Positions 1,770 to 6,390 of a DNA stretch of 20,183 bases are shown piece by piece. The notes beneath the pieces were generated by a model that had not been told where the DNA came from, made no database searches, and worked only from the letters and a program-made list of their open reading frames with translations. Source of the stretch: a virus; the IMG/VR virus record IMGVR_UViG_3300023301_000154, positions 1 through 20,183 of that record. One strand, 5' to 3'. Both the position numbers and the translations under genes were made by a program. Within the stretch, counting starts at the first letter, position 1. Every line of letters begins with the position of its first letter.

Positions 1770-1928
1770 ATGCAAAAATGTAACAAAAACCAAAAAGAAA
1801 TATTAGAGGTAAATCGAACACAGTCATTGTGCGAGTATGAGGGGTTAGTTACATTCCCTCTCAGAAAGCAGAATGGCTGTTTTCGTTTTATCTCTAGTAA
1901 CTTAATAAAAAATGTAATATGTCAGTAA
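1770..1928 (+). CDS. Small hypothetical protein, 52 aa
   Basis: An ORF of 52 codons starts MQKCNKNQKEILEVNRTQ and ends by overlapping the first bases of the primase gene (ten bases shared). It has four Cys residues and a plausible beta segment (GLVTFPLRKQNGCFRFISS). It fills the 200-base gap between its neighbours and has the usual AT-rich leader. If it is not coding, the stretch holds only weak hairpins (for example GAGGG/CCCTC near 1840-1860). Function unknown. Confidence 0.4.
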   Translation: MQKCNKNQKEILEVNRTQSLCEYEGLVTFPLRKQNGCFRFISSNLIKNVICQ

Positions 1929-5563: not shown

Positions 5564-5598
5564 TTATCCACAGGTTATCAACTTGACAGCACCGACAC
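5564..5598 (+). promoter_or_regulatory. DnaA-box-like pair plus GCACCGACAC (copy 2)
   Basis: A perfect DnaA box TTATCCACA (5564-5572) starts one base after the helicase stop. TTATCAACT (5575-5583) follows in the same 11-base register, and GCACCGACAC lies at 5589-5598. The layout repeats that at 911-952, although spacing between the boxes and the GCACCGACAC word differs. It probably controls the RNA-encoding promoter it overlaps. Confidence 0.6.
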
Positions 5599-5612
5599 CA
5601 AAATGATAAAAT
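5583..5612 (+). promoter_or_regulatory. Promoter of the structured RNA region
   Basis: A consensus -35 TTGACA (5583-5588) and TAAAAT (5607-5612) are separated by 18 bases. The start would be near 5619, just before the first long RNA stem. The second DnaA-like box touches the -35, so its occupant could block RNA polymerase. Confidence 0.65.
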
Positions 5613-5634
5613 AAACGAAGTTCATTGAAATTAA

Positions 5635-5785
5635 ATAATGTGTAGAATGGATGTAGGTTCAAATCCTGCCCGTAGAAATACGAAGTAGCTTAAACTAGCA
5701 AGGTAGAGCAATGGTTGGTATAAAATCAGACAGGTAATAAGATTAAATGCTAGTTACTTATTATCTCATCCATTCTGCACATTAT
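5635..5785 (+). ncRNA. Structured RNA 1, with permuted tRNA-like arms
   Basis: No protein gene fits here. ATAATGTGTAGAATGGATG (5635-5653) pairs with 5767-5785 as a 19-bp stem with one G-U. Inside it are five hairpins in a row. (1) GTAGG-TTCAAAT-CCTGC (5653-5669), a classic T-arm with T-T-C-A-A loop. (2) CGTA-GAAA-TACG (5671-5682), capped by a GNRA tetraloop. (3) GCTT/GAGC (5688-5691 with 5706-5709) preceded by TA and with GG in its loop, like a D-arm. (4) TGGTT-GGTATAA-AATCA (5712-5728), a 5-bp stem with 7-base loop like an anticodon arm. (5) AGGTAATAAG/CTTATTATCT (5732-5766), 10 bp. The order is that of a circularly permuted tRNA whose ends lie between variable region and T-arm. It is not a normal tRNA: there is no CCA, the position before the anticodon is G rather than U, and the D-loop is 14 bases. 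Confidence 0.7.
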
Positions 5786-5786
5786 A

Positions 5787-5999
5787 AATAGTGTGTAGAA
5801 CCTTACGAGTTTTATTGAACTGAAACTGACAATAAACTAAGTGATGGTAACACTGAGAGACTCAAACTACGCATACTCAAACAAAAACATCCTGAGACAA
5901 GCCTAGTAACCAACATGGCGGGTTAAGAGGGATTGAGAGTATTGCAATACCAGAGTAGGGGTGAGACGTTCATTGGCTTGTAAGGCTCTGCACATTATT
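5787..5999 (+). ncRNA. Structured RNA 2, tandem partner of RNA 1
   Basis: AATAGTGTGTAGAACC (5787-5802) pairs with GGCTCTGCACATTATT (5984-5999), 16 positions with two G-U pairs and one mismatch. The stem sequences are nearly those of RNA 1, so the two elements look like diverged tandem copies of one closing helix. Inside are AGTTTTATTG/CAATAAACT (5808-5838, one bulge), AGTG-ATGGTAA-CACT (5840-5854), and a longer-range helix ACAAGCC/GGCTTGT (5897-5903 with 5975-5981). That helix encloses TAACC/GGTTA (5907-5925) and the palindrome GTATTGCAATAC (5939-5950). No known RNA class was recognised. No terminator follows; the transcript probably continues into the gene at 6016 or is processed. Confidence 0.65.
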
Positions 6000-6015
6000 A
6001 AATTTTAAAAACATT

Positions 6016-6390
6016 ATGAGAAAAATCGAAGCCAAGAAGAACACAATACTGAATCAGTACCTAAAAGAAAAAAAGTGGTACATATATTACGAGCTGAAAC
6101 AAACCAATATGGAGTCGTTTCAGTTTGCAAAAATTGAAGCAGGACAAGACGAAGGTTTACCAGCTCTTGAGAAATCCGGATTAGTCGTGAAATTCTCAGA
6201 CGAGATTAGTAGACAAAAACCATGTGACGGTGTATCAATCCCTCCACTTCCTTCCTATCTAGTTATAAAATTTAAAAAAGAATTTTGTTTCATAAGATAC
6301 AAGGAGATAGAGAAGTTAAGGAACCAGGGAGTTATATCAATCACAAAAGAAAAAGCAAAAGAGTTATCAGAAAAAATAATAATACTATAA
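6016..6390 (+). CDS. Possible PD-(D/E)xK Holliday-junction-resolvase-like nuclease
   Basis: The 124-residue protein starts with a helix, then WYIYYELKQT with a candidate ExK pair (E26, K28). It continues with a conserved-looking segment SFQFAKIEAGQ, LVVKFSDEISRQKPCDG (D71), and PPLPSYLVIKF. This order of an E-x-K strand, a Gln/Glu-rich helix and later strands resembles small phage resolvase-like nucleases of the restriction-endonuclease fold, which cut branched DNA during replication and packaging. The assignment rests on pattern resemblance and position in the replication block. A different nuclease-fold function is possible. It begins 17 bases after RNA 2 and its stop overlaps the next start (TAATG). 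Confidence 0.5.
   Translation: MRKIEAKKNTILNQYLKEKKWYIYYELKQTNMESFQFAKIEAGQDEGLPALEKSGLVVKFSDEISRQKPCDGVSIPPLPSYLVIKFKKEFCFIRYKEIEKLRNQGVISITKEKAKELSEKIIIL

What the first reader, a model, noticed from the sequence alone, without database searches (positions are those of the whole stretch)
5635..5999. Two tandem, highly structured RNAs sharing one closing helix
Seen directly: 365 bases without a protein gene hold two adjacent elements. Each is closed by a long stem whose strands carry the same words (xTGTGTAGAA at the 5' side, CTCTGCACATTAT or TTCTGCACATTAT at the 3' side). RNA 1 closes with 19 bp and RNA 2 with about 15 of 16 positions. Both contain several inner hairpins with G-U pairs, which suggest selection on RNA rather than DNA inverted repeats. 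A consensus -35 promoter sits just upstream. I know of no described RNA class with this layout; large phage RNAs such as GOLLD and ROOL are much longer.
Basis: seen in the sequence. Interest (0 to 1): 0.8.

Follow-up and report, generated by a model that had tools for sequence, protein, structure and literature searches.

The report
Twin phage RNAs, one mimicking tRNA
A phage carries two side-by-side noncoding RNAs closed by the same terminal helix; the first holds a rearranged tRNA look-alike of the bacterial Y RNA (YrlA) type, and an unrelated phage has the same pair, so this looks like a new variant of Y RNAs whose protein partner is still unknown.

Summary
Confirmed: two adjacent, non-coding, strongly folded elements (5635-5785, 5787-5999; z -5.3, -4.7) lie between a near-consensus promoter and a resolvase-like gene. 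RNA1 is not classless: its MFE fold is a circularly permuted tRNA (T-arm, GAAA-capped acceptor hairpin, UA, D-arm) that keeps the tRNA elbow bases but has no acceptor end and no normal anticodon loop. This is the module of bacterial Y RNA YrlA. A model built from Ro60-bearing viral contigs finds RNA1 at 31.6 bits (E 3e-8; next best 6.8). Viral contigs with the module encode Ro60 in 33 of 46 cases, against 1 of 40 controls. But RNA1 scores only 12 bits with Rfam YrlA, its closing helix lacks the Ro60-side motif, and no Ro60 gene was found in the window or 31 relatives. Decisive: L552, a phage with no detectable protein similarity, carries the same tandem pair: same helix words (UGUGUAGA/CUGCACAU), same U.G wobble, covarying flanks (95.8% paired, 8 of 18 pairs changed on both sides). 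Best reading: a rare, conserved pair of Y-RNA-like RNAs sharing a protein-binding helix with an unidentified partner. A decoy role is inferred only.

The parts
5583..5612 (+). promoter, TTGACA (5583-5588), 18-nt spacer, TAAAAT (5607-5612)
   Evidence: 11 of 12 letters; relatives keep a TTGACA/TATAAT-like promoter right before the resolvase gene
5635..5785 (+). RNA1, 151 nt, Y-RNA-like tRNA mimic
   Evidence: fold z -5.33; R2 31.6 bits, E 3.2e-8 at 5650-5712; R1 15.2 bits
5635..5653 (+). RNA1 closing helix, 5' arm (pairs with 5767-5785)
5653..5669 (+). RNA1 T-arm GUAGG-UUCAAAU-CCUGC (its first G can alternatively extend the closing helix)
5671..5682 (+). RNA1 hairpin CGUA-GAAA-UACG in the place of the acceptor stem
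   Evidence: P 0.96; aligned to the capped hairpin of viral Y modules
5686..5710 (+). RNA1 U8 A9 and D-arm GCUU...GG UA GAGC A
5712..5728 (+). RNA1 arm in anticodon position, UGGUU-GGUAUAA-AAUCA, no U33
   Evidence: weak, mean P 0.33
5732..5766 (+). RNA1 V-like hairpin AGGUAAUAAG...CUUAUUAUCU
   Evidence: P 0.86
5767..5785 (+). RNA1 closing helix, 3' arm with UUCUGCACAUUAU
5787..5999 (+). RNA2, 213 nt, second RNA with the same terminal helix words, core of unknown class
   Evidence: fold z -4.66; homologous arrangement in L552 RNA B
5787..5810 (+). RNA2 closing helix, 5' arm: 13 bp, A5800 mismatch, 10 bp
5976..5999 (+). RNA2 closing helix, 3' arm with CUCUGCACAUUAUU, C5986 opposite A5800
6016..6390 (+). 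downstream gene, Holliday junction resolvase-like (124 aa); context, not part of the RNAs
   Evidence: phrog_843, E 3.5e-5; syntenic in relatives

Best explanation
The locus makes two tandem noncoding RNAs of the bacterial Y RNA kind from one promoter. Shown by sequence analysis: RNA1 carries the circularly permuted, acceptor-capped tRNA-like module that characterises YrlA; both RNAs end in one conserved helix (UGUGUAGA/CUGCACAU with a fixed U.G wobble); the same pair exists in an unrelated phage. Inferred: the shared helix is the docking site of one protein, in the place where Y RNAs bind Ro60/Rsr but with a different motif, so the partner is a diverged or host Ro60 or another protein; the RNAs are cut free of the resolvase mRNA; RNA1's elbow (T-loop/D-loop) engages a tRNA-handling enzyme (a tRNA nuclease of host defence, PNPase or a tRNA-modifying enzyme) as decoy or tether, while RNA2 brings a second effector domain to the same protein.
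For: MFE fold gives the permuted tRNA arms unaided. R1, from ordinary tRNAs permuted, finds RNA1 as best hit, E 0.003. Viral loci with the same module encode TROVE/Ro60 in 33 of 46 contigs, against 1 of 40 tandem-tRNA controls, and nine of them match Rfam YrlA at 38-53 bits. R2 finds RNA1 at E 3.2e-8. Viral Y loci include tandem units with common ends, some without the tRNA-like module. L552 has a homologous pair with the same helix, 95.8% paired and 8 of 18 pairs changed on both sides, without protein similarity between the phages at E 0.01.
Against: RNA1 scores only 12 bits, E 0.22, with RF02553 and L552 none at E 10. The Ro-side 5' word is not above background, and the helix is fully paired where viral Y RNAs appear (by eye) to have an internal loop. 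No TROVE in the window, 31 relatives or L552. RNA1's stem enters next to the T-arm, not next to the D-arm as in viral YrlA. The scan pattern behind R2 was written with RNA1 in view, so its E-value is optimistic. Transcription, processing and protein binding are untested.
Confidence: 0.66

Rival explanations
1. The two elements are a structured 5' leader that controls translation or stability of the resolvase mRNA in cis; the tRNA-like fold would be sensed or bound by a protein.
For: They lie between the promoter and the resolvase gene without a terminator in between; in relatives the same promoter abuts that gene.
Against: In L552 the pair precedes a different gene (98 aa) in a phage with no similar proteins; relatives do without the RNAs; the long end-to-end helices suit discrete RNAs.
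Confidence: 0.17
2. True Y RNAs in the strict sense: they bind a Ro60/Rsr protein that is encoded by the host or by the unseen part of this phage.
For: The module co-occurs with Ro60 in 33 of 46 viral contigs; the window is a 20-kb fragment.
Against: No TROVE in 31 relatives, many of 40 kb or more, nor in L552; the Ro-side word is not met.
Confidence: 0.2
3. RNA1 is a decayed remnant of two neighbouring tRNA genes or a tRNA-derived relic without function.
For: R2 and the pattern also match neighbouring tRNA pairs.
Against: No tRNA in the window; no anticodon arm before the T-arm and no T-arm after the D-arm; capped hairpin and intact elbow; conserved paired helix in L552.
Confidence: 0.03
4. 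The shared ends are terminal inverted repeats of a small mobile DNA element, not RNA helices.
For: Common ends with different interiors; the site is an insertion hotspot in relatives.
Against: The U.G wobble sits at the same place in all four helices and changes are compensated; the interior obeys tRNA rules.
Confidence: 0.03

Closest known systems
Bacterial Y RNA YrlA (Rfam RF02553), including viral YrlA beside TROVE/Ro60 genes
   Same: Long stem joining 5' and 3' ends; permuted tRNA-like module T-arm, capped acceptor hairpin, UA, D-arm; tandem units with common ends
   Different: Terminal helix with its own motif and fully paired in RNA1; stem enters beside the T-arm; no Ro60 gene known in these phages; 12 bits with RF02553 (gathering 69)
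tRNA (RF00005) and circularly permuted tRNA genes
   Same: T-arm, D-arm and elbow invariants
   Different: No acceptor end or CCA, capped by GAAA; no U33; no ARAGORN or Rfam hit
tmRNA tRNA-like domain
   Same: tRNA-like module on a long stem
   Different: No open acceptor end, no tag frame recognised; ARAGORN finds no tmRNA
GOLLD, ROOL and other large phage-borne RNAs
   Same: Structured phage noncoding RNAs
   Different: No Rfam match; much shorter

Membership tests
Bacterial Y RNA (YrlA) | tRNA-like module: T-arm, capped acceptor hairpin, D-arm, in permuted order | tested here: met
   R2 31.6 bits, E 3.2e-8, RNA1 5650-5712; E-value optimistic because the scan pattern was derived with RNA1 in view; R1 E 0.003
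Bacterial Y RNA (YrlA) | long stem between 5' and 3' ends | tested here: met
   18-19 bp in RNA1, 13+10 bp in RNA2
Bacterial Y RNA (YrlA) | Rfam RF02553 score above gathering (69 bits) | tested here: not met
   12 bits, E 0.22, only hit in the window; note that nine Ro60-bearing viral YrlA also stay below gathering at 38-53 bits
Bacterial Y RNA (YrlA) | Ro60-side sequence word in the stem | tested here: not met
   PSSM of 58 viral words: the 22-column motif is absent; the first 12 columns rank 94th and 150th of 40,344
Bacterial Y RNA (YrlA) | Ro60/Rsr (TROVE) gene in the same genome | tested here: inconclusive
   none in window, 31 relatives or L552, but the window is a fragment and the host is unknown
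Bacterial Y RNA (YrlA) | binding of Ro60 and of PNPase | not testable with these tools
   needs biochemistry
tRNA | open acceptor stem with 3' end and anticodon loop with U33 | tested here: not met
   GAAA cap, loop GGUAUAA (sequence); no ARAGORN or RF00005 hit
Family of the window pair and the L552 pair | tandem RNAs, conserved helix UGUGUAGA/CUGCACAU kept by compensatory change, first RNA with tRNA-like module | tested here: met
   only two genomes known

The most novel reading that the evidence does not exclude
A new class of paired phage RNAs: a tRNA-elbow mimic and a partner RNA that share a terminal helix for a protein other than Ro60, found in unrelated phages and used against tRNA-targeting host defences.
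Probability: 0.33. Interest if true: 0.82.

Novelty: new variant of a known kind. Interest (0 to 1): 0.64.

Why it matters
[quoted passage not shown] A Y-RNA-like pair in phages without a known Ro60, with a terminal helix of its own, separates the tRNA mimic from Ro60 and gives a small system in which that idea can be tested. The survey also shows that Ro60 and permuted tRNA-like modules go together in dozens of viral contigs, while those checked (nine with RF02553) stay below Rfam's gathering score.

Tried and rejected
Scans with the closing-stem words over IMG/VR gave only chance matches. The RNAs are absent from the syntenic site in every relative read; that gap holds only a promoter or protein genes. 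nhmmer and blastn found no homologue in relatives. No antisense match within the window beyond the RNAs' own arms and short chance matches. tmRNA and group I intron were considered and rejected: no ARAGORN or Rfam hit. RtcB as a partner of the module: 1 of 33 records. A genome scan for the host found nothing useful. The other 13 loci look like chance matches in coding DNA; only L552 is a true pair. An idea that RNA2 also has a D-arm (UA-AGUG-AUGGUAA-CACU-G) stays weak: it is not in the MFE and neither R1 nor R2 hits it. The key Y RNA papers (Chen 2014, Wang 2018, Sim 2018) are not held.

Full report
What is there. Window 5564-6015, between a helicase gene and a resolvase-like gene, has no protein gene. 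A promoter with 11 of 12 consensus letters lies shortly before the first element. RNA1 (5635-5785) and RNA2 (5787-5999) fold far better than shuffled sequence. Their closing helices are among the most probable parts: 18 bp for RNA1; 13 bp, an A.C mismatch and 10 bp for RNA2.

What RNA1 is. Its MFE fold, obtained without any tRNA knowledge, has the arms of a tRNA in circularly permuted order: T-arm GUAGG-UUCAAAU-CCUGC, a hairpin CGUA-GAAA-UACG where the acceptor stem would be, U8 A9, a D-arm with A14, G18 G19 and A21, an arm of 5+7+5 in the anticodon position (weak) and a long V-like hairpin. Read on the sequence, the elbow bases of a tRNA are present (U8, A14, R15, G18, G19, A21, Y48, G53, U54, U55, C56, R57, A58, Y60, C61), while the acceptor end is closed by a GNRA loop and the anticodon-position loop lacks U33. 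To test this without RNA1 itself, 36 ordinary phage tRNAs were permuted and made into model R1: RNA1 is the best hit in the window, 15.2 bits, E 0.003, next 7.5.

Link to Y RNAs. Pattern scans for T-arm, short gap and D-arm in viral contigs returned neighbouring tRNA pairs, but also loci where the gap is a capped hairpin and no ordinary tRNA follows. That layout is described for bacterial Y RNA YrlA: a large end-to-end stem plus a domain like the D, T and acceptor arms of tRNA (PMC8394870). The link was tested by gene content. TROVE/Ro60 occurs in 6 of 10 and 27 of 36 contigs carrying the module, in 1 of 40 contigs with tandem tRNAs only, and in none of 32 records of the window's lineage. Rfam's YrlA model matches nine module carriers at 38-53 bits. 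A model of 33 modules from Ro60-bearing contigs, R2, finds RNA1 at 31.6 bits, E 3.2e-8, with nothing else above 6.8 in the window. Caveat: the scan pattern was written with RNA1 in view, so R2's E-value is optimistic; the less biased figures are R1 (E 0.003) and RF02553 (12 bits, E 0.22, but the only hit in the window). R2 also scores true tRNA pairs, but RNA1 has no second T-arm or anticodon arm around it that would make it such a pair.

Tandem arrays. Some viral Y loci hold two or three units in a row with common ends, some of them lacking the tRNA-like module (L329, L412; L460 and L474 read by eye, where a reading frame follows that I take for the Ro60 gene). RNA1 followed by RNA2 with the same ends but no such module is the same arrangement.

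The homologous pair. A scan for the stem word close to a Y-like module found L552 (IMGVR_UViG_3300005664_000023, 35 kb, minus strand about 32,065-31,738), which carries RNA A (module, 34.7 bits with R2) and RNA B (about 200 nt) in tandem. All four helices have UGUGUAGA opposite CUGCACAU, with the U.G wobble in the same place; RNA2 and RNA B share the A.C mismatch after UAGA, and RNA A has one a position earlier. On the 18-pair alignment 95.8% of cells pair, 8 pairs change on both sides, and the covariation score is 0.602 against 0.196 shuffled (0 of 500), falling to 0.16 or less when slid. The two phages differ in G+C (48.8% and 36.7%) and share no protein at E 0.01. In 5.6 Mb of held DNA the four best matches to the helix are these four RNAs. 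A last scan for the pair found no third case. Four sequences in two genomes are few: the covariation is clear, but the tree behind it is unknown.

How it may work. Shown by analysis: a promoter, no coding capacity, conservation as RNA, a tRNA-elbow module in the first RNA, a common terminal helix. Inferred: one protein binds both helices. In Y RNAs that protein is Ro60, but here the Ro-side word is not above background, RNA1's helix is fully paired where viral Y RNAs appear by eye to have an internal loop, and no TROVE gene was found in these phages. The capped acceptor and missing anticodon argue against a role in translation and leave binding by elbow-reading enzymes. A decoy for a tRNA nuclease was proposed for YrlA itself (PMC7790460); I take it as the leading but unproven role, at about 0.3. 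A purely cis-acting leader is less likely because the downstream gene differs in L552.

Site. In relatives the place between promoter and resolvase gene is either empty or holds protein genes, some of which look to me like HNH-type endonucleases (not searched against families). The RNA pair is therefore best seen as cargo at an insertion hotspot.

Novelty. YrlA and phage Y RNAs are known (PMC7765460 cites reports of YrlA in phages). The pair with its own conserved helix and no known Ro60, the different point of entry of the stem, and RNA2's core have no Rfam match, and I found no description in the papers I could search; the main Y RNA papers were not available.

Noticed in passing
window 1778-1918 (upstream of the primase gene): A long hairpin whose apical loop GTTACATT (1848-1855) is complementary to an upstream AATGTAAC (1778-1785). 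Nearly all relatives have it, and loop and upstream word change together (TCTACATT/AATGTAGA in L004, L005, L198, L201; TTGCATT/AATGCAA in L182, L183): a candidate conserved pseudoknotted RNA or replication origin.
   Followed up: partly
L014 7700-7815: A tRNA-like RNA (RF00005 48.9 bits) on a closing stem of about 21 bp, with the anticodon loop replaced by a GGUA tetraloop and no CCA.
   Followed up: partly
L007 7697-7795; L192 10660-10755: Further stem-enclosed tRNA-like elements in relatives; L007 has a T-arm followed by a GAAC-GAAA-GUUC hairpin, as in RNA1.
   Followed up: partly
L314, L318, L324, L446, L447, L418, L479 (module loci): A second group of capped tRNA-like modules with an ACAGCAA or ACAGCGA word and no TROVE gene found; the partner is unknown.
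   Followed up: no
L351 18312-18483; L362 14766-14958; L369 7195-7306; L373 4087-4209 (minus): Other structured intergenic elements closed by long stems in relatives, unrelated in sequence to RNA1 and RNA2.
   Followed up: no
window 5564-5572: TTATCCACA, the letters of a DnaA box, just upstream of the promoter; similar words stand near such promoters in relatives (for example L005, L183).
   Followed up: no
helicase-resolvase gap of relatives, e.g. L002 6290-6360: The promoter's -10 box ends only a few bases before the resolvase start codon, which suggests leaderless transcripts in this phage group.
   Followed up: no
L552 minus strand, RNA B: RNA B contains GGTGGCGGAATAGGTAGACGC, like the D-arm part of tRNA-Leu, directly above its closing helix.
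   Followed up: no
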